Assembly (NCBI RefSeq): GCF_900182705.1
Contig: NZ_FXTP01000005.1
Coordinates: forward strand, 186,001-250,000
From: Gracilimonas mengyeensis
GTDB taxonomy: Bacteria > Bacteroidota > Rhodothermia > Balneolales > Balneolaceae
DNA: 64,000 nucleotides
Direction of reading: 5' to 3'
Below, piece by piece: positions 14,996-32,340 of the stretch. The notes below the pieces were generated by a model. It did not search any database. It was not told where the DNA came from and saw only the letters and a program-made list of their open reading frames with translations. Made by a program: the position numbers and the translations under genes. Positions within the stretch are counted from its first letter, which is position 1, and each line of letters begins with the position of its first letter.

Positions 14996-15691
14996 CTACC
15001 AGTGCAACCCACACTCGGTTTTGCCGGAATCGCCCCAGCGGCCTTCGCGGCCCTCGCCCTTTTTGGTGCAGTGGGTGCAGCCAATGGAATCATAACCAAA
15101 GCGCTCGAGGGGATGGCGGGGAATGCCAAAACTTTCAAAATAGTCTTCCACCATTTCCGGACTCCAGTCAATCAGCGGATAGTAGCGATACAAGTCATCG
15201 CGCTCTTGCAGGATTTCGAGTCCGCTTCGGTAACTGTTTTGGTAACCAATCAGACCTGAAATCCACACTTTGTGGTTTTTCTTAATTTTGGCCAGAGGTT
15301 CCACTTTGTTGTAGTGACAGCAGAGATCCGGATTATCTTTCCAGAGTTCATCCTCACGCGTAATACGGTGCTTTTCCTTATCCGGCACATGGTCAATCAC
15401 GTTGATGCCATAGCGATCAATCAGCTTATCCTTATACTCCAGGGTTTCCGGAAACAAGTAGCCGGTATTCACAAAGTGAATGGGATGCCTTGGACGTATC
15501 CGGCTGATCATGTGGATGAGCAGTGCAGAAGTAGTCCCAAATGAGGTTGTGATAAGTACCTCATCTCTATACTTATTCAGGATATGAGCTATCCTGACAT
15601 CGTTATGGGCGTTCGAAAGGGTTTTGTTGATTTTCTCTATTTCCATCGATTCCATGACCCTAATTATCTTACTTTCGACGGCTTTAATCAA
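14996..15691 (-). CDS. cysH: Phosphoadenylyl/adenylyl-sulfate reductase (CysH family)
   Basis: A protein of up to 231 residues; a start at 15655 (MESMEIEKIN) would remove 12 residues and is equally likely. It has the PP-loop-like start VLITTSFGTTSALLIH, the IHFVNTGYLFPETLEY block and a cysteine set CC (in PDLCCHYNK) plus CTHC, ending in ECGLHW. The CC...CxxC pattern indicates a 4Fe-4S cluster, which in this family goes with APS-reducing enzymes; the ECGLH tail carries the catalytic cysteine. It reduces activated sulfate to sulfite for cysteine synthesis. No other sulfate-assimilation gene is adjacent, and repeats lie upstream in transcription order and downstream. Confidence 0.92.
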   Translation of the reverse strand: MIKAVESKIIRVMESMEIEKINKTLSNAHNDVRIAHILNKYRDEVLITTSFGTTSALLIHMISRIRPRHPIHFVNTGYLFPETLEYKDKLIDRYGINVIDHVPDKEKHRITREDELWKDNPDLCCHYNKVEPLAKIKKNHKVWISGLIGYQNSYRSGLEILQERDDLYRYYPLIDWSPEMVEDYFESFGIPRHPLERFGYDSIGCTHCTKKGEGREGRWGDSGKTECGLHW

Positions 15692-24183: not shown

Positions 24184-24987
24184 TTAGAATGTGGTATCGA
24201 AGAAATCTTTCATCTCCTCCCAGGAAAGACTATCGGCTTGGGCGTTGTAGGCCAGGGGGAGGTCAAACTTTTGGCCGAGGGTGTCTGCGCCGGGATTGGT
24301 GTAGGCGTGCATGGCATTCTCGTAACTGATGTACTGGTAGTCTGCATTCAGATCTTCGTACGCGCCGGTCAGGGTGGCCACGTGCTCTTCTGTCACAAAA
24401 GGATCAGCCGCGCCGTTTAGGATCAGGATGCGGGTGTCGAGGGAGTCTTCGGGCATCACGGGCAGCTGCAGTCCGGCATGGAAAGCGGCGATGCCACCCA
24501 AATCCACCCCGACGTTGGCCATGGCAAGGATTACGCTGCCACCAAAGCAGTAGCCGATGGCTCCGATCTTGGTAGAATCTACGTTATCCTGGCTTTTGAG
24601 GGTTTCCATGGCTGCGGTAAAACGCGCCTGGGCCGACTCAAAATTACTCATCACGTTATTGGAGAACTTCATGGCGTCATCCGGATGGGAGGCTTGTTTC
24701 CCGTTGCCATACATATCCACAGCCAGGGCTACGTAGCCTAATTCCGCCAGTTTCTCGGCGCTTTGGCGCGCGTGGGCATCATGCCCCCACCACTCGTGCA
24801 CCACCAGGATGCCGGGTCGCTGTTCAAAATTATTTTCGTCCTGGGCAATGTAGCCGTTCATGGTGATTTCATCGGTGGAGTAGCTGATCTCCTGCCCCAC
24901 CACGTTGGACTCGTTTTCGGTGTATTCGCCTTGCCCACAGGCCACAATAAATAATAACATCGCAAATAATGGTAATAATCTCTTCAT
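24184..24987 (-). CDS. Dienelactone hydrolase family lipoprotein
   Basis: A 267-residue alpha/beta hydrolase with a lipoprotein signal (lipobox IVAC, C17). The catalytic triad of the dienelactone hydrolase family is visible: nucleophilic Cys in IGYCFGGS, Asp in LNGAADPFV and His in NAMHAYTNPGAD. The HEWWGHDAHARQSAEKLAEL segment is also typical. The family hydrolyses lactones and esters; the natural substrate here is unknown. It is a single gene, with its promoter region in 24988-25220 shared with the divergent HNH gene. Confidence 0.92.
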   Translation of the reverse strand: MKRLLPLFAMLLFIVACGQGEYTENESNVVGQEISYSTDEITMNGYIAQDENNFEQRPGILVVHEWWGHDAHARQSAEKLAELGYVALAVDMYGNGKQASHPDDAMKFSNNVMSNFESAQARFTAAMETLKSQDNVDSTKIGAIGYCFGGSVILAMANVGVDLGGIAAFHAGLQLPVMPEDSLDTRILILNGAADPFVTEEHVATLTGAYEDLNADYQYISYENAMHAYTNPGADTLGQKFDLPLAYNAQADSLSWEEMKDFFDTTF

Positions 24988-25222
24988 ATGATTTCTGAAA
25001 TAGTTTAATATTGAATAATTGCTTAGTGGGTATAACAGGTTGGAGGGAAGGAATGGTTCCGATCTTGAGATCAGCTTTCTCTACTGGGGTGATGGAATTT
25101 CCTACTCACTTATTCAGATAGTAAGAATTTTTAGAACCTAATAATTTGTAAAGCCTTGCTTTATCGCCAGGAAAGTTTAGTTTTGGGGAAGATGTAGAAT
25201 ATAAATCCAAATAATATGGGTT

Positions 25223-26140
25223 ATGAATCCGGAAATCATTAATTGGCTAAAAAACCTAAATACCGATAAATCGAATCCCTGGCCGAATGAAGTCACCAAC
25301 CAAGCACCGCATAAACCATTTTTGCTACTTAGCGTTATTGACGGGATTGAGCAGGGCTGGATCGAGAATAACTACATTGAACTATCTTCTGAACTCAGCG
25401 GAGCTTTTTATCGATACTGGGATGAAATCATGGGAGATAGAAATACAAAGATCTCTATCCCTTTTAATCATTTAGATGGTGAGCCATTTTGGACAACAAA
25501 CAAAAAGAATGCATTTCTTGATGATAAATTGTTCGACCTCTTAAAACAAGAAAAACATAGAGACCATGTTCGGGGCATTTTATTGCGGAAATACTTTGAT
25601 AATGAAACAGCCGCAAAATTAATTGGGATAGGAGAAATGTCAGGTGATATTTGGGAAAAGTCGAAAGAGTTAAGTGAAATGGTTCAAAATGAATTTGTTG
25701 CCATGCATTCCTCCAAAGGAAAAACAAAAACATCTATCGTTGAACGTCAAAAAAGAGGCCAAAGCTTTTCTTTGTCAGTAAAAAATCAATATCGGTACCA
25801 TTGTGCTGTTTGTAGGTCAAAAGTTATTACGCCCGGCGGAAAGGTAATTGTAGACGGTGCTCATATAATACCTTGGGAGGTGAGTTATAACGATGACCCC
25901 CGAAATGGAATTTCACTATGTAAAAATCACCACTGGATGTTTGACGAACACCTCTACACCGTCAGGCCTGATTACACCATTTTGATGTCGCCCATTCTTT
26001 CTGAAAAAGGGCAAAAGATGGATATAGCAAACATAGCTAATACAAAGATTCTACTTCCCGCTAATGAGTCGTATATACCTGCTGAAGAAGCACTTTTATA
26101 CCACAATAGGAAATTTGAGGAGTTTCATAATAGCCTATAG
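25223..26140 (+). CDS. Probable type IV restriction endonuclease: sulfur-binding-like domain plus HNH nuclease
   Basis: A 305-residue two-domain protein. The N-terminal part (about 1-150) contains QAPHKPFLLLSVIDGIEQGW and FNHLDGEPFWTTNKK, matching the ScoMcrA-type sulfur-binding domain that reads phosphorothioate DNA (recognised from memory of the family). The C-terminal HNH domain has C194 and C197, H214 (DGAHIIPWE), the N of DPRNGISLC and the final H in KNHHWMFDEH. By family it would cut phosphorothioated or otherwise modified foreign DNA. It starts an AT-richer stretch that also encodes McrBC, and the next gene starts 3 bases after its stop. No dnd/ssp modification genes are seen. Confidence 0.82.
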   Translation: MNPEIINWLKNLNTDKSNPWPNEVTNQAPHKPFLLLSVIDGIEQGWIENNYIELSSELSGAFYRYWDEIMGDRNTKISIPFNHLDGEPFWTTNKKNAFLDDKLFDLLKQEKHRDHVRGILLRKYFDNETAAKLIGIGEMSGDIWEKSKELSEMVQNEFVAMHSSKGKTKTSIVERQKRGQSFSLSVKNQYRYHCAVCRSKVITPGGKVIVDGAHIIPWEVSYNDDPRNGISLCKNHHWMFDEHLYTVRPDYTILMSPILSEKGQKMDIANIANTKILLPANESYIPAEEALLYHNRKFEEFHNSL

Positions 26141-26143
26141 CAG

Positions 26144-26995
26144 ATGAAAAGAAATCCAAATTCACATCTCACGGCCAAGGAACGGGATAAAGTTTCTTAT
26201 CCCACTCGCAAGCTCTACAATTTGGGGGTGATTGAAGGAGAGGTGCTGGATTTTGGATCAGGCTATGGAAAGGATGCGGAGTTTTTGAATGCAAAGAATA
26301 TAAGTTGTACCCCCTACGATCCTTATCATGCCCCGGATTATCCCAATAAGAAATTTGATACTATACTCTGCCAATACGTGCTAAATGTGTTGTTACCAGA
26401 AGAACAGGCGGAAGTGCTGATGTCGGTAAGTGAATTATTGAAGCCAACTGGGAAAGCCTATTTCACCGTGCGACGGGATTTGAAGAGATTTGGTTATCGA
26501 ACCCATTACGTTCACAAAGTGCCAACCTATCAATGTAATGTGAGGCTGTCATATAAATCCCTTTTTAAAAACGATTTTTGCGAGATTTATGAATATCAAC
26601 ATTTCACCCAAGTAAATAACGGTAAGGAAGGCATTTTTGAAAACCCGTCACCGGATGCAGAACTCATCTCTGAACTTGCAACAGTGTACAGCATCTACGA
26701 CAAGTATCCGGTGAGCAAAGGCCATGCGCTCGTGATTCCCAAGCGCAAATCCGCCCACTATTTTAAAATGACCGACAAAGAAAAAACCGCCTGCCAAATT
26801 ATGGTAGAACGGGTAAAAACCATCTTAGAAAAGAAATACCAACCCGACGGATTCAATATCGGCTTTAACATGAATGAAGCCGCCGGACAAACCGTCTTTC
26901 ATACGCATATTCACGTTATTCCCAGATACAAAGGAGATGCAGAAAATCCCCGTGGAGGGATAAGGAATGTGATTCCGGGGATGGGGGAGTACTGA
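26144..26995 (+). CDS. Methyltransferase-HIT domain fusion protein
   Basis: A 283-residue fusion. Residues about 1-165 are a class I SAM-dependent methyltransferase (motif I EVLDFGSGYGKDAEF, then FDTILCQYVLNVLLPEEQAE). Residues about 180-283 are a HIT hydrolase domain with the histidine triad HTHIHVIPR and the AVYSIYDKYPVSKGHALVIP-type start (ATVYSIYDKYPVSKGHALVI). HIT enzymes hydrolyse or transfer nucleotides. The fusion is known in databases, but I know of no proven role; its position 3 bases after a restriction nuclease and next to McrBC suggests nucleic-acid or nucleotide modification in defence. It converges on mcrC with a 9-base gap. Confidence 0.88.
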   Translation: MKRNPNSHLTAKERDKVSYPTRKLYNLGVIEGEVLDFGSGYGKDAEFLNAKNISCTPYDPYHAPDYPNKKFDTILCQYVLNVLLPEEQAEVLMSVSELLKPTGKAYFTVRRDLKRFGYRTHYVHKVPTYQCNVRLSYKSLFKNDFCEIYEYQHFTQVNNGKEGIFENPSPDAELISELATVYSIYDKYPVSKGHALVIPKRKSAHYFKMTDKEKTACQIMVERVKTILEKKYQPDGFNIGFNMNEAAGQTVFHTHIHVIPRYKGDAENPRGGIRNVIPGMGEY

Positions 26996-27004
26996 TAGAG
27001 AAAA

Positions 27005-28450
27005 TCAGTTCAAAAATATCGGTAACAACTTTTCGATATTTTCTTCATCCAAATCAAATGGTATTGCGGTAAGAAAAACGTTAATTCGTTTATTCCCCCT
27101 GCTTATCTCAGCTTTATGAATATGTCGATTTCGTTTTAATAGTGATTTCCACGTCTCTTTTTTGCAAGGATATACCAAACAGCAACTTATATTTTTTTGA
27201 CTCACTCCAGTTGTGTAAGCCAATATTTGTAGTAAATCATTGCGATGTCTTTCCTTTATTACATCCTCTAAGTTGTTCCAGTTTTTGATGTTTAAGTCTT
27301 CCCAATGATCTTTATATTTGGCATCAATAATGAATAAATCATCATTCCGAGTAAAGACAATATCAGGCACAAGAGATCGCTGAGAGCCTATTAGTGGAGG
27401 GTCCCAATCAATTGGAATGATAGTTTCTCGTAATCTTCCTGATTTTATGATGCCGCCAATTTTTCCCGAGATTCTTGAAATTACCGATTCAAGATAAGAT
27501 TCAAATAGTACCTCCATATTCATTGACCACGGCAAGCCATGGAGGTCACCTATTCCAGCAAGTCCCTTCTCCTCACTAGTCCATTTTATTGCCTGAATAC
27601 CTTTTGTTAGAGTATCGCCTTTAAACGATTGTGATAACAGTTTACTCAATTGTAACGGTGTTGGTTTTACAGGAGAGGCATCATAAACGTTCTGCAAAAG
27701 AGAGTCACAATAATCAATTAGTTGAATTACAAAAATGCCGAAATCACGTTGTGTTTCCAGGCTCTGCTTTTGTTTTTGCAGTGTGTGTTTAATAAATGAT
27801 TTCACCAATCTATTATCTCGAAGGTCCGAGTATGTACAATTGAAATCTAAAAAGTTAGCACTGGATACTCTTCTTTGTGCATAATCTGCCCAATCTACTG
27901 ACCCCTTGGGAATAGGATGAACCTCAGTTGTCATCTCAAAACGCCGGTCGAGTTTCTTGATGAGATTTTCAATTCTTGAAAGAATTACAGTAGATAATAC
28001 CCAAGGTGGAATGTGGGTTTCTGATATTCGAAGTTGTGGCAATTCTAAGATCTGAGGCAAATACCTAAACCCTGTTCTTGATAGAATGGGTCCCACTCCA
28101 TTCCAACCAAATCTTGGCTTAATAACAAGACTGTACTCATTTTTATGGGTAATAGGTGATATAAGCGGAACAGCGCCGATCTTTGTGTGCGACTTAAGAT
28201 TCAACTTAATATCATCTCCGCTATAACTTAGCTGTGCCTGTACATCAAGCTCGTTTAAATAGGGTTTATTTATCTTTAAAAATTGGTGAACAAGCTTAGC
28301 TACTACTGGATCTTCATTACGGGCGTTTACATGCTGAGACAGGAAAGAAGTTGCCAGATAAGACCTTTCAGAATCGTTGAGTTCTAATACATTCAACCTG
28401 CTGGGTTGCAATGATTTTACCCAGTCCGTATTTGATTGTTTTTTAGCCAC
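27005..28450 (-). CDS. mcrC: McrC-like nuclease subunit of a McrBC restriction system
   Basis: A 481-residue McrC family protein. The C-terminal half carries a PD-(D/E)XK nuclease core: the acidic residue in SLVPDIVFTRND and the IDAKYK motif. The LPWSMNMEVLFESYLESVI segment just before it is typical of McrC. The N-terminal half would contact McrB. It follows mcrB with an 11-base gap. In E. coli, McrB and McrC form a GTP-driven translocase and nuclease that cuts DNA with modified cytosines. Codon and base use look AT-richer than the flanking metabolic genes. Confidence 0.9.
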   Translation of the reverse strand: MAKKQSNTDWVKSLQPSRLNVLELNDSERSYLATSFLSQHVNARNEDPVVAKLVHQFLKINKPYLNELDVQAQLSYSGDDIKLNLKSHTKIGAVPLISPITHKNEYSLVIKPRFGWNGVGPILSRTGFRYLPQILELPQLRISETHIPPWVLSTVILSRIENLIKKLDRRFEMTTEVHPIPKGSVDWADYAQRRVSSANFLDFNCTYSDLRDNRLVKSFIKHTLQKQKQSLETQRDFGIFVIQLIDYCDSLLQNVYDASPVKPTPLQLSKLLSQSFKGDTLTKGIQAIKWTSEEKGLAGIGDLHGLPWSMNMEVLFESYLESVISRISGKIGGIIKSGRLRETIIPIDWDPPLIGSQRSLVPDIVFTRNDDLFIIDAKYKDHWEDLNIKNWNNLEDVIKERHRNDLLQILAYTTGVSQKNISCCLVYPCKKETWKSLLKRNRHIHKAEISRGNKRINVFLTAIPFDLDEENIEKLLPIFLN

Positions 28451-28461
28451 AAGCTATAAAT

Positions 28462-29919
28462 TTAAAGCTGCTCAATTTCTTGGATATAGGCGTGTATTGC
28501 GTCAGCAAAGTTAGATACATACCCCTGATTCAGATATTCATTTAGAAGAGGAATTAAGTTTGTTTTCATCTGAACTGCCGCATCCACATCTTCATGGGCA
28601 ATAAAATATGAATGTCCTGGCATTAGAGCGAATGATTCATTTGGAGCATATTCAATGAAAATGCCAAGTAGTTTTTGAAATGCCGGTTTGGTAATCTTAT
28701 TCCCATACCTTTCAACAATTTCATTATGCGGCCACATATCCACGAAGGCAAACCTTCGCCGAATCGCCACATCAAGAATCGATATGCTCCGATCGGCCGT
28801 ATTCATTGTGCCAAGGATATGAAGGTTTGAAGGAATCGACATTGACTTATTTATGGGTTCTCCAAAATCATAAGATAATTCAATGGACCGGTCTTCAAAT
28901 GGTTCTAAGCTATAAATGGCTTCACCTAAAACCTTAGATAGATCAGCGCGATTAATCTCATCGATTACCAAAAGAATATCTTCATCTGTTTCTTGAGCTT
29001 TCGCAACGGCATCAAGTAGATGTCCTCGTTTTACCTGGAACTGTAAACCCAATTCAGATTTTGTAGTGTTCGGAAATAAGCCGCCAATAAACGTTTCATA
29101 GGTTGTGTTTGGATGGAACTGAATTGCACTTCCTCTATTATCATAGTCTTCTTTTAGAAGTTCATTCGCCAGCTTTGTTTTACCTGTTCCTGGAGGGCCT
29201 TGCAGTATCACAAATTTCCGATCTTGTAATAATTTCTTTACATCATCTTTCTTTGTCGTTGGCATTAAATGACTGAAATATGAAGTTCGAATTTTTTTCG
29301 CATCATCTTCGAATGCCGACAAAGTTGAATGTCCTCTTTCTTGAAAATGGAAATCAAGAAAAACCTTCAAAGCATTTTCAAGTAGGTCCTCTTTGGCTGC
29401 ACAAAAACCATATATTACATCACCGTATCTATCAAAAACCTCTTTATATTCTGGATATTCTTTCCGAACATTATCGGGTACTGAAATGTCCGTTCTCACT
29501 GCTTCCCTTTTGGCCCAAGCAACTTGTTCATCACTTTTGTTTTCCGTGTTTAACCATTTACAAATAGCGTTAACTTTTCTTGAATGACCTGGCTTACCAA
29601 TAATATGCTCATCTGGACTCAAGCCCTGTGTACCAACCACCATCGCAATCATAGGAGGGGCTTCAGGTACTGGAAAAATCACAAAGCTCATTCCTCCATA
29701 TCCACCGCTATCTGGATTTGATTCATGAATAATTGCTGAAAAAGGAACACTTTTTGAACCTGAATTAAATTTCGGGGTACGAAAGCTTATTTCATCACTT
29801 GCCTTCTTTGCATATCTCCCGCCAGTAGATCCAAAAAGTTCTTCAAAACCTTGCTTTGATTTATCTGGCCAAAAGTTTGGATCGTATGGTTCTTTTAAAA
29901 GCTCAAGTAGTTTTTCCAT
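28462..29919 (-). CDS. mcrB: McrB-like AAA+ GTPase of a McrBC restriction system
   Basis: A 485-residue motor subunit. The AAA+ domain occupies about residues 215-470: Walker A GPPGTGKT at 241-248, Walker B ILLVIDEINRADL and the McrB-specific GTMNTADRSISILD, which in this family goes with GTP use. The N-terminal 200 residues (SVPFSAIIHESNPDSGGYGG; VVGTQGLSPDEHIIGKPGHS) are probably the target-recognition module; they are not the E. coli McrB DUF3578-like sequence as far as I can tell, so the DNA modification recognised is unknown. It precedes mcrC and starts next to a 300-base gap. Confidence 0.92.
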   Translation of the reverse strand: MEKLLELLKEPYDPNFWPDKSKQGFEELFGSTGGRYAKKASDEISFRTPKFNSGSKSVPFSAIIHESNPDSGGYGGMSFVIFPVPEAPPMIAMVVGTQGLSPDEHIIGKPGHSRKVNAICKWLNTENKSDEQVAWAKREAVRTDISVPDNVRKEYPEYKEVFDRYGDVIYGFCAAKEDLLENALKVFLDFHFQERGHSTLSAFEDDAKKIRTSYFSHLMPTTKKDDVKKLLQDRKFVILQGPPGTGKTKLANELLKEDYDNRGSAIQFHPNTTYETFIGGLFPNTTKSELGLQFQVKRGHLLDAVAKAQETDEDILLVIDEINRADLSKVLGEAIYSLEPFEDRSIELSYDFGEPINKSMSIPSNLHILGTMNTADRSISILDVAIRRRFAFVDMWPHNEIVERYGNKITKPAFQKLLGIFIEYAPNESFALMPGHSYFIAHEDVDAAVQMKTNLIPLLNEYLNQGYVSNFADAIHAYIQEIEQL

Positions 29920-30219
29920 ATATCACTATGAATTAATTTTATTTACAGAAAAATTGTCTTCAGGGATTATGGATAAAGATGCCATTAACTTCAAGTCTAT
30001 ATGTTTGGTTAACCTACTTTTCTCTAATTCTTATTTGATAGAAGTTTTCTACTACTTACCTTCCCCAAACATCAAGAAACTCTCCGGAGTTACCAACCGA
30101 CCAACTCGGGCACGGTGGTTCAAGCGATGTGGGATTCATCTCCAAATAAACGAGTTCCCCTCTTCCAGGATCTTGGTGTAACGACGAAATTGAAACGAAG
30201 AATACCAACGTTACACACT
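29920..30219. other. Divergent intergenic region
   Basis: About 300 bases between the divergent mcrB gene and the next hypothetical gene. It is AT-rich in the first half and must hold the mcrBC promoter. No protein-like frame or clear repeat is seen. Confidence 0.5.
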
Positions 30220-30660
30220 ATGATTTACCCAGACACTCCTGCCAACAACGCACTCACTTTATCCGGCCTCGACCTCAAGAAGGTCAACGACCTGATGGAC
30301 ACCAACGGGCTTTCCATGTATGCCATGTTCCGTGGACCGCGGGCCTATTTGCTTGAAATCAAAAACGGTTGTGCCACTTTGGAAATCATTTATCCCCGGC
30401 ATCTCCCCGATAGTGGAAGGGATGAAATTTACATCCTGAAAGTCCTGGCCTATTGTCTGGGTAAAAGCCTGGCGCGGATTAACCATCTGCTGTTGTTAGA
30501 GTACGAGGCAAAAGGCTCCGGTGCTTTTATTGATTTCCGTTTTTACACCAAGGAAGAATCCAGGCAGAAAGCGGATGATGCTTTGTCTTCTTCCGTTGAC
30601 AAGAAAAAAATCAGGGATCGTATTTTTGACCGGAATGAGCTGATTGATTTGTATAAGTAG
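30220..30660 (+). CDS. Conserved-looking hypothetical protein
   Basis: I place the start at 30220 (MIYPDTPANNALTLSGLDLK), 146 residues; a longer frame from 30115 adds 35 residues of unlikely composition. The protein looks real: mixed beta-alpha character (LSMYAMFRGPRAYLLEIKNG; ATLEIIYPRHLPDSGRDEIY; RINHLLLLEYEAKGSGAFID) and a charged helical C-terminus. It has no signal peptide or transmembrane segment. I do not recognise a family. It sits between McrBC and the repeat array, so it could be part of the defence island or an unrelated gene. Confidence 0.6.
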   Translation: MIYPDTPANNALTLSGLDLKKVNDLMDTNGLSMYAMFRGPRAYLLEIKNGCATLEIIYPRHLPDSGRDEIYILKVLAYCLGKSLARINHLLLLEYEAKGSGAFIDFRFYTKEESRQKADDALSSSVDKKKIRDRIFDRNELIDLYK

Positions 30661-30689: not shown

Positions 30690-32340
30690 ACAATTGGTAT
30701 TAGGGAGATTGCTTCGTCGGGTTGCTTCCCAGCCCTACTTTATGCTAATGGGCTCCTCGCAATGACGTTACTTTTTATGAGTTTAGGTGGGCTTTGACTT
30801 TCCAACCAACGTTCGGTCATCGCGAGGAGATGCTTTTGCCTACACTCGACATCACTGCCCAACGACGTGGCGATCTGTTAATAGTAGCAACTCACTATCC
30901 AAAAATTCTTTGTTGCGCATCCCAAGCCGTATTAGGGAGATTGCCGCGTCGGTGATTATCCCAAACCTGCATTCTACATCGTGGCTCCTCGCAATGACTT
31001 GGGTTTTTAAGAGTTTGGGTGGGTTTTCGTTTTCCAACCAACGCTCGGTCATCGCGAGGAGATTCTTTTACCTACACTCGATATCGTTGCTTAACGACGC
31101 GGCGATCTGTTGAATCATAGCTATACACTAGCCATTGGTTCGTTGTTTTACATCCATAGTTGTAATAAAGAGATTGCCACGTCGGGGATCATCCCAAACC
31201 TGCATTCTGCATCGTGGCTCCTCGCAATGACTGAGCTTTTTTCGTATGTATGGTCTGTATTCGCTCCCAATCATAATGCCGTGTACCTAATATGCTTTTT
31301 CATTATAATTCAACATGGGGAACAAAGACTTATACGTTTATCTACTTACCAACAAAAATCACACTGTTATCTACTGCGGTGTAAGCAGCGACCTTTTAAA
31401 CCGAGTCTGGAAGCACAAAAACAAGGTTTACGACGGGTTTACCAAGAAGTATAATGTGGACAAACTCGTTTACTATGAAGGTCCCGAGGACCCCATTTAT
31501 GCTATAGAAAGAGAAAAACAGATCAAAGCAGGTTCCAGGCAAAAAAAGATCGACTTGATAATCTCAATGAACCCTGAATGGCGTGATTTATATGAGGATT
31601 TGATCCCTGAAGGTTTTAAAGAATTTGATGAGGAGAATGATAACTCTGATAGCTGATTTGTTTAAGTAGATATGGCGCACCCATCACCCGGTCATCGCGA
31701 GAAGGCTGCCCCGTTTATACTTGGCTTTCGATGTTTATCGACGCGGCGATCTGTCGAATCTTAGCAACTCACTAGCCACAGGTCATTTGTTGCACAACCA
31801 AATGGTATTAGGGAGATTGCCGCGTCGGTGATCATCCCCAACCTACATTCTGCATCGTAGGCTCCTCGCAATGACTTGGATTTTTAAGAGTTTGGGTGGG
31901 TTTTCGTTTTCCAACCAACGCCCGGTCATCGCGAGGAGATTCTTTTACCTACACTCAATATCGTTGCTTAACGACGTGGCGATCTGTCGAATCGTAGCAA
32001 CTCACTAGCCACAGGTCATTTTTTACACAACCAAATGGTATTAAGGAGATTGCCACGTCGGTGATCATCCTAAGCCTGCATTCTGCATCGTAGGCTCCTC
32101 GCAATGACTTGGATTTTTAAGAGTTTGGGGGGGGTCGTTTTCTAACCAACGCCAGGTCATCACGAGGAGATTCTTTTACCTACACTCGATATCGTTGCTT
32201 AACGACGTGGTGATCTGTTGAATCATAGCTATACACTAGCCATTGGTTCGTTGTTTTACATCCAAAGTTGTAATAAAGAGATTGCCGCGTCGGTGAGTAT
32301 CCCAAACCTGCATTCCGCATGGGGGGTTCCTCGCAATGAC
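30690..32340. repeat. Tandem array of a ~232-bp nested-palindrome repeat
   Basis: Unit starts (GGTCATCGCGAG or close) are at 30815, 31047, 31690, 31924 and 32155, and a partial unit precedes them (30690-30814); spacing is 231-234 bases where units are adjacent. Each unit has outer arms GTCATCGCGAGGAG and CTCCTCGCAATGAC (one mismatch) and inner arms CGACGTGGCGATCT and AGATTGCCGCGTCG (wobble pairs), so one unit can fold as a long two-step hairpin. A linker GAGTTTGGGTGGGTTTTCGT joins the units. The GIY-YIG gene at 31315-31656 sits between units 2 and 3. Confidence 0.9.
31315..31656 (+). CDS. Single-domain GIY-YIG nuclease
   Basis: A 113-residue protein covering one GIY-YIG domain: the first motif appears as YVYLLTN, the second as IYCGVSSDL, then the catalytic-type arginine in LLNRVWKHK and the conserved glutamate in YAIEREKQIKAGSRQKK. 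These belong to the small URI/YhbQ-like group whose cell role is poorly known. The C-terminus is acidic (EFDEENDNSDS). The gene lies inside a tandem array of ~232-bp palindromic repeats, with copies directly on both sides, which suggests it could be linked to their spread or was inserted there. Confidence 0.88.
   Translation: MGNKDLYVYLLTNKNHTVIYCGVSSDLLNRVWKHKNKVYDGFTKKYNVDKLVYYEGPEDPIYAIEREKQIKAGSRQKKIDLIISMNPEWRDLYEDLIPEGFKEFDEENDNSDS

What the first reader, a model, noticed from the sequence alone, without database searches (positions are those of the whole stretch)
25223..29919. Type IV restriction island with a sulfur-binding-like HNH nuclease and McrBC
Seen: a 305-aa protein with APHKPFLLLSVIDG and a C2-H-N-H nuclease, a methyltransferase-HIT fusion, and a McrB/McrC pair (GTMNTADRSIS; IDAKYK), in visibly AT-richer DNA than its neighbours. 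Established: McrBC and ScoMcrA-type enzymes cut DNA carrying foreign modifications. Inference: the cell bears two modification-dependent barriers side by side and no DndABCDE/Ssp genes here, so it likely rejects phosphorothioated DNA and not its own.
Basis: partly seen in the sequence, partly recalled or inferred. Interest (0 to 1): 0.58.

Follow-up and report, generated by a model that had tools for sequence, protein, structure and literature searches.

The report
HNH restriction cassette with HIT partner
A bacterium carries a DNA-cutting enzyme related to those that attack sulfur-marked DNA, but its DNA-reading loop is missing and it is paired with an unusual helper protein that, in related genomes, travels with DNA-cutting enzymes as what looks like an undescribed two-gene defence module.

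Summary
In detail: 25223-29919 encodes an SBD-HNH nuclease, a methyltransferase-HIT (MT-HIT) fusion and a convergent McrB/McrC pair in AT-rich DNA. The N-terminal domain is a true sulfur-binding-domain fold (best structural match SBDHga, Z 15.9), and no dndC, dndD or SspD-like gene was found in the genome. The PT-rejection inference is weakened: a 20-residue deletion, unique among 26 aligned homologues, removes the loop by which ScoMcrA reads bases around the sulfur; the cavity residues remain. In 79 of 79 best MT-HIT loci with upstream sequence the preceding gene is an HNH nuclease: 77 of another family ('YKFA-HNH'), 2 SBD-HNH. A close HIT clade without MT sits beside or fused to HNH in 13 of 18 loci, against 0 contiguous of 20 control HIT loci. 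Upstream of the window's nuclease lies the YKFA-HNH leader and start codon; a relative keeps 15 codons, so the nuclease was swapped while MT-HIT stayed. I read this as a restriction-like cassette of exchangeable HNH nuclease plus HIT enzyme; HIT chemistry is inferred. McrBC is an independent neighbour. Eight paper searches found no description of the pair.

The parts
24184..24987 (-). dienelactone-hydrolase gene: left flank, marks a site that holds SBD-HNH in G187, G262 and G398 and an EcoRII-type R-M pair in G089
   Evidence: Pfam DLH; same-site loci
25136..25201 (+). relict leader and start-codon region of a YKFA-HNH gene, upstream of the present nuclease
   Evidence: 79-82% identical to the leader of YKFA-HNH in L081-L083; 50.9-66.2 bits against at most 32.8 for 500 shuffled copies
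25223..26140 (+). SBD-HNH nuclease, 305 aa
25223..25642 (+). sulfur-binding-domain fold, residues 1 to about 140
   Evidence: Z 15.9 over 121 residues to 8h0l_B, Z 13.2 to 5zmo_A
25490..25513 (+). codons 90-97: site of the 20-residue deletion of the base-contacting loop
   Evidence: 12 residues between W90 and L103 here, 32-36 in all 25 others aligned
25754..26113 (+). HNH nuclease domain, residues about 178-297
   Evidence: HNH_2 194-247; TagI Z 14.5; conserved columns kept
26144..26995 (+). MT-HIT fusion protein, 283 aa
26144..26638 (+). SAM-dependent methyltransferase domain, residues 1-165, distantly like the N-terminus of TIGR04096
   Evidence: TIGR04096 E 4.1e-14, 52.2 bits (cut-off 150) over residues 8-94; motif I kept, no DNA-methyltransferase catalytic motif
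26654..26932 (+). HIT domain with intact HxHxHxx, residues 171-263
   Evidence: PF01230 8.6e-20; motif
27005..28450 (-). McrC-like PD-(D/E)XK nuclease (neighbouring, separate system)
   Evidence: PF10117 4.3e-12
28462..29919 (-). McrB-like AAA+ NTPase (neighbouring, separate system)
   Evidence: AAA_5 4e-14; NF008457 1.3e-31 below its cut-off

Best explanation
A restriction-like two-gene cassette: an HNH nuclease with an N-terminal DNA-reading domain, encoded 3 nt in front of MT-HIT and probably translated together with it, next to an independent McrBC pair in a defence hotspot. Shown: the SBD fold, the HNH motif, the loop deletion, the near-obligate HNH/MT-HIT linkage, HNH-HIT fusions elsewhere, and the exchange of an original YKFA-HNH for an SBD-HNH in front of a retained MT-HIT. 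Inferred: the nuclease nicks or cuts incoming DNA, here with weakened, lost or altered PT specificity because the base-reading loop is gone. Inferred with less confidence: the HIT enzyme removes adenylyl groups (from 5'-adenylated nicks or from a ligase-AMP intermediate), so that breaks are not resealed or damaged ends are cleaned, while the MT domain acts on a nucleotide or similar small group and not as a standard sequence-specific DNA methylase.
For: 79 of 79 MT-HIT loci with upstream sequence have an HNH gene directly before them, gaps -14 to +20 nt (the 80 best of 523 relatives). HIT clade without MT: 8 of 18 same-strand contiguous with HNH, 4 of 18 fused, 1 adjacent on the other strand, 5 none; control HIT loci: 0 of 20 contiguous, 1 of 20 with a weak match within 3 kb. 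Fusions carry Pfam HNH and HIT in one ORF (2 of 2 scanned). Exchange scars. Hotspot: SBD-HNH at the same site in G187, G262, G398 and an EcoRII-type R-M pair in G089. DndC-type gene directly upstream of the cassette in L145 and L146. Catalytic motifs intact.
Against: No activity data. PADLOC on 124 neighbours of MT-HIT found no dominant defence family (top families in 4 of 124). YKFA-HNH's N-terminal domain has no clear match in the PDB, so its role as a reader is untested. Most SBD-HNH relatives have no HIT gene beside them. The HIT chemistry rests on the superfamily only. Not seen on viral contigs as a full fusion (0 of 13) nor on plasmids (0 of 93 records with 80% cover).
Confidence: 0.5

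Rival explanations
1. One reading: a normal PT-dependent type IV enzyme beside McrBC, with MT-HIT an unrelated neighbour.
For: SBD fold and sulfur-cavity residues H30, K31, P80 kept; no dnd/ssp found in the genome.
Against: The loop that reads bases is deleted, uniquely among 26; MT-HIT is the constant partner of HNH genes.
Confidence: 0.17
2. A swapped-in nuclease in early decay: the loop deletion made it unable to recognise its target, and the pair is now inactive or nonspecific.
For: 20-residue deletion found in 1 of 26; cassettes decay elsewhere (G400/L122 broken frames, G398/L127 HIT remnant); an N-terminal truncation turned SprMcrA into a nonspecific nickase (PMC7461809, passages).
Against: Frame open, only 1 of 22 otherwise invariant columns broken, as in several intact relatives; the model is confident around the deletion (pLDDT about 90).
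Confidence: 0.2
3. R-M-like pair: MT-HIT marks host DNA or its precursors so that the nuclease spares self.
For: Order and closeness of the genes; MT resembles the N-terminus of the phosphorothioation-associated methyltransferase family; DndC-type gene beside the cassette in two genomes.
Against: A DPPY- or PCQ-type motif was found in 0 of 81 MT-HIT proteins; MT is missing in the HIT-only pairs.
Confidence: 0.1
4. HIT hydrolyses a nucleotide signal (for example a diadenosine polyphosphate) that gates the HNH nuclease.
For: HIT part matches Ap4A/ATP adenylyltransferase models and structures; a HIT gene (ThsC) accompanies some Thoeris systems (PMC8565338, one passage).
Against: No signal synthase is conserved next to the pair in the loci read.
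Confidence: 0.12

Closest known systems
PT-dependent SBD-HNH restriction enzymes (ScoMcrA, SprMcrA, EcoWI; SBDHga)
   Same: SBD fold, H/K and P of the sulfur cavity, C-terminal HNH, no dnd genes found in the genome
   Different: base-contacting loop deleted; below the curated NCBIfam cut-off; paired with MT-HIT
McrBC
   Same: McrB-type AAA+ with GTMNTADRS, McrC with PD...DAK, adjacent genes; no C5-methyltransferase in the genome
   Different: below the NCBIfam equivalog cut-offs; N-terminal part of McrB without a Pfam match, so specificity unknown
DNA phosphorothioation-associated methyltransferase, TIGR04096
   Same: N-terminal 90 positions of the methyltransferase fold
   Different: 52 bits against a cut-off of 150, 90 of 478 positions; fused to HIT
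HIT-domain hydrolases (Ap4A phosphorylase-like, Hint)
   Same: HIT fold and HxHxHxx
   Different: fused to a methyltransferase and encoded next to, or in relatives fused to, HNH nucleases
Thoeris type II with ThsC (HIT gene in a defence system)
   Same: a HIT protein as accessory of a defence system
   Different: no Thoeris genes among the four here; the partner is an HNH nuclease

Membership tests
PT-dependent SBD-HNH restriction enzyme | SBD fold | tested here: met
   8h0l_B Z 15.9 rmsd 1.9 over 121; 5zmo_A Z 13.2
PT-dependent SBD-HNH restriction enzyme | sulfur-cavity residues H116, R/K117, P165 (ScoMcrA numbers) | tested here: met
   H30, K31, P80; Y164 is I79 here, L in 20 of 25 others
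PT-dependent SBD-HNH restriction enzyme | base-contacting loop (S187RGRR191 in ScoMcrA) | tested here: not met
   12 residues where 25 of 25 others have 32-36
PT-dependent SBD-HNH restriction enzyme | score over the NCBIfam NF045808 cut-off | tested here: not met
   88.7 bits against 180; two full-loop relatives also fall short, 108 and 116 bits
PT-dependent SBD-HNH restriction enzyme | intact HNH motif | tested here: met
PT-dependent SBD-HNH restriction enzyme | no PT-modification genes in the same genome | tested here: met
   dndC and dndD no match; PAPS family only CysD/CysH; SspD only a weak match on CysH; assembly 97.5% complete
PT-dependent SBD-HNH restriction enzyme | cleaves PT-DNA | not testable with these tools
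   needs an assay
McrBC | McrB AAA+ NTPase and McrC PD-(D/E)XK nuclease, adjacent | tested here: met
   motifs seen
McrBC | curated equivalog scores | tested here: not met
   McrB 109.8 against 637, McrC 29.4 against 338 bits
McrBC | reader domain for modified cytosine | tested here: inconclusive
   no Pfam match in the N-terminal part of McrB
DNA phosphorothioation-associated methyltransferase TIGR04096 | score over cut-off | tested here: not met
   52.2 against 150 bits
HIT hydrolase superfamily | PF01230 over cut-off and HxHxHxx | tested here: met
   71.7 against 21.5 bits; motif in 80 of 81 MT-HIT proteins, the window included
DNA methyltransferase of an R-M system | DPPY- or PCQ-type catalytic motif | tested here: not met
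   0 of 81

The most novel reading that the evidence does not exclude
HNH + HIT (with or without a fused methyltransferase) is an undescribed defence system of Bacteroidota and some Chloroflexi in which the HIT enzyme is the constant core, deadenylating DNA ends or ligase so that restricted DNA cannot be resealed, and in which the nuclease is an exchangeable part; the window shows an exchange of a YKFA-HNH for an SBD-HNH, with the SBD then losing its base-reading loop.
Probability: 0.22. Interest if true: 0.78.

Novelty: new variant of a known kind. Interest (0 to 1): 0.55.

Why it matters
If a HIT hydrolase is a standing partner of HNH restriction nucleases, it gives this old enzyme superfamily a direct role in DNA restriction and offers a testable idea: that cells stop invaders from resealing cut DNA. 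The exchange scars show nucleases being swapped in front of a fixed partner. The loop deletion offers a natural test of how much of the sulfur-binding domain is needed to read PT-DNA, and warns that an SBD hit alone does not prove PT restriction.

Tried and rejected
Profile-profile comparison of SBD-HNH (A1) with YKFA-HNH (A2) aligned only the HNH part (probability 81%), so common descent of the N-terminal domains was not shown, although both have a helix that starts with [HY]-K followed by leucines. Foldseek and VIA-align on the YKFA-HNH model found mainly Cas9-type HNH domains and no SBD; the N-terminal part is barely tested there. PADLOC on 124 of 252 eligible neighbours of MT-HIT (146 chosen as the nearest two a locus, 22 mostly long ones of these left out for size) gave no dominant family. 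McrBC as part of the cassette was rejected: no McrC homologue at E 1e-4 in the 53 related loci (three stretches of the own genome in the same call not counted). Phage origin was not supported: 13 viral loci match the methyltransferase part only. Paper searches for an HNH-HIT or MT-HIT pair (SBD search) found none; subscription papers are mostly not held.
Full report
What is there. The window lies in a 4.67-Mb genome in 33 contigs, 97.5% complete. It belongs to the same genus as G159, whose contig length and MT-HIT position equal those of Gracilimonas amylolytica LA399, so the organism is probably a Gracilimonas (inference).

The nuclease. Residues 25-297 match NF045808, PT-DNA_restrict, E 3.5e-25, 88.7 bits, under its cut-off of 180; two full-loop relatives also stay under it. 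phmmer finds SBDHga at E 2.3e-7; the family profile finds it at 4.1e-29, and ScoMcrA weakly. An AlphaFold2 model (pLDDT 85.8) aligns to SBDHga (Z 15.9, rmsd 1.9, 121 residues), the ScoMcrA SBD (Z 13.2) and the SprMcrA SBD (Z 12.3), and its C-terminal half to TagI (Z 14.5).

The deletion. In an alignment of 26 SBD-HNH proteins, some of them near-identical pairs, the window has 12 residues between W90 and L103; the other 25 have 32 to 36. The family-to-ScoMcrA alignment places the S187RGRR191 loop in that stretch (the chain's numbering there is one higher than the paper's). PMC6224610 (passages) reports that this loop enters the major groove to read the core bases and that R190A/R191A abolished binding; PMC7470945 (passages) describes an equivalent loop in SprMcrA. 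The cavity residues remain: H30, K31, P80. Otherwise the gene is not eroded: 1 of 22 invariant columns broken, as in several relatives. So PT reading is probably weakened, lost or changed; this is inference from two other enzymes. It is a single genome, and an assembly fault, though unlikely for a 60-base in-frame gap, is not excluded.

Dnd/Ssp. In the own genome dndC and dndD have no match. The three PAPS-reductase matches score best as CysD or CysH. SspD gives one weak match, on a CysH gene. No C5-methyltransferase is found, which fits McrBC.

MT-HIT. The second gene fuses a methyltransferase fold, distantly like the first 90 positions of TIGR04096 (52 bits, cut-off 150), to a HIT domain. 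In 394 genomes of the phylum, 16 including this one have a relative over nearly the whole length (E 1.9e-83 or better); in the family, 10 of 92 have one, of which G399 is cut by a contig end and G400 is broken. In 79 of these 80 there is sequence upstream; in all 79 the gene directly upstream on the same strand is an HNH nuclease, 77 of the YKFA-HNH family (named here for its TYKFA motif) and 2 of the SBD-HNH family: L134, which is G413, and L140, a Rhodothermaceae MAG. The 443 other relatives were not examined.

HIT without MT. Of 18 loci with a HIT protein of this clade but no MT, 8 have an HNH gene contiguous on the same strand, 4 are HNH-HIT fusions, 1 has an HNH gene adjacent on the other strand, and 5 have none, one of them at a contig end; of 20 control HIT loci none is contiguous with HNH and 1 has a weak HNH match within 3 kb. 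Pfam confirms HNH and HIT in one ORF for the 2 fusions scanned, L102 and L124. HIT, not MT, is therefore the constant partner.

The exchange. Window 25136-25201 is 79-82% identical to the leader of YKFA-HNH in L081-L083, with bit scores of 50.9-66.2 against at most 32.8 in 500 shuffles, and the match runs through that gene's start codon. The MT-HIT genes of YKFA-partnered relatives align again from 26143 or 26144 on (74-83% DNA identity in the six complete ones), and in L081-L083 nothing aligns in between. In G413, where SBD-HNH also precedes MT-HIT, the first 15 codons of a YKFA-HNH gene remain, beginning 52 nt before the SBD-HNH start. The nuclease was replaced while MT-HIT stayed. L117 (G413) and L140 both keep the loop that the window lost.

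The site. The dienelactone-hydrolase gene at 24184-24987 has a match in 7 of 10 genomes of the genus, this one included. Next to it stand SBD-HNH in G187, G262 and G398 and a C5-methyltransferase with an EcoRII-C nuclease in G089; G159 has neither, and G399's contig is too short to tell. This is a hotspot for restriction genes. McrC homologues were absent from the 53 related loci, so McrBC is treated as a separate neighbour.

Mechanism. Shown: folds, motifs, linkage, exchange. Inferred: restriction. A DPPY- or PCQ-type motif occurs in 0 of 81 MT-HIT proteins, which speaks against a standard modification methylase. HIT enzymes act on nucleotide phosphoramidates (recalled) and on adenylated DNA ends in the case of aprataxin (PMC4530458, start of the abstract in the listing); hence the guess that HIT removes adenylyl groups and keeps cut DNA from being resealed. 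I give that step about one chance in five.

Link to phosphorothioation elsewhere. In 2 of 80 loci (L145, L146) a 457-aa DndC-type gene lies 18 nt upstream of the YKFA-HNH/MT-HIT pair; L145's scores 423 bits against a cut-off of 290, L146's was identified by its similar sequence only. In 2 more (L138, L204) a PAPS-reductase-like gene is adjacent and scores for no dnd model at 1e-5.

Literature. Eight paper searches and passages of seven papers gave no description of an HNH-HIT or MT-HIT pair. PMC10853773 (passages) holds that the SBD is a winged helix-turn-helix; [quoted passage not shown]

Verdict.

Noticed in passing
window 30064-30159 (+), ORF 30223-30660: SAM-I/IV riboswitch (61.3 bits, cut-off 41.1), the only one found in the genome, upstream of a 145-aa ORF without Pfam match; similar riboswitches lie near related loci in L083 (two), L039 and L127, none in the other 11 loci scanned.
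   Followed up: partly
L145 33-1406, L146 1757-3130: A DndC-type gene directly upstream of a YKFA-HNH/MT-HIT pair in two Flavobacteriales MAG contigs.
   Followed up: partly
L138 3705-4835, L204 6548-7651: PAPS-reductase-like genes of about 370 aa adjacent to the HNH/MT-HIT pair; identity unknown.
   Followed up: partly
L095 10160-11827 (-): A second methyltransferase-like domain fused to a YKFA-HNH-like part, just upstream of an MT-HIT whose C-terminus looks eroded.
   Followed up: no
L127 8920-9165 (-): An 81-aa ORF joining the start of a Vsr-like gene to the end of a HIT domain with a changed histidine motif, after an SBD-HNH: a decayed remnant.
   Followed up: partly
L122 752-2644: YKFA-HNH and MT-HIT of G400 both broken by frame shifts or stops.
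   Followed up: no
L209-L221: 13 viral contigs encode proteins like the methyltransferase half of MT-HIT, 28-43% identical, match not reaching HIT.
   Followed up: no
window 15059-15559 (-): A CysH-like gene; a second CysH and a CysD lie elsewhere in the genome.
   Followed up: partly
window 31315-31656 (+): A 113-aa GIY-YIG protein; similar small ORFs stand near the dienelactone-hydrolase site in L031, L039 and L228.
   Followed up: no
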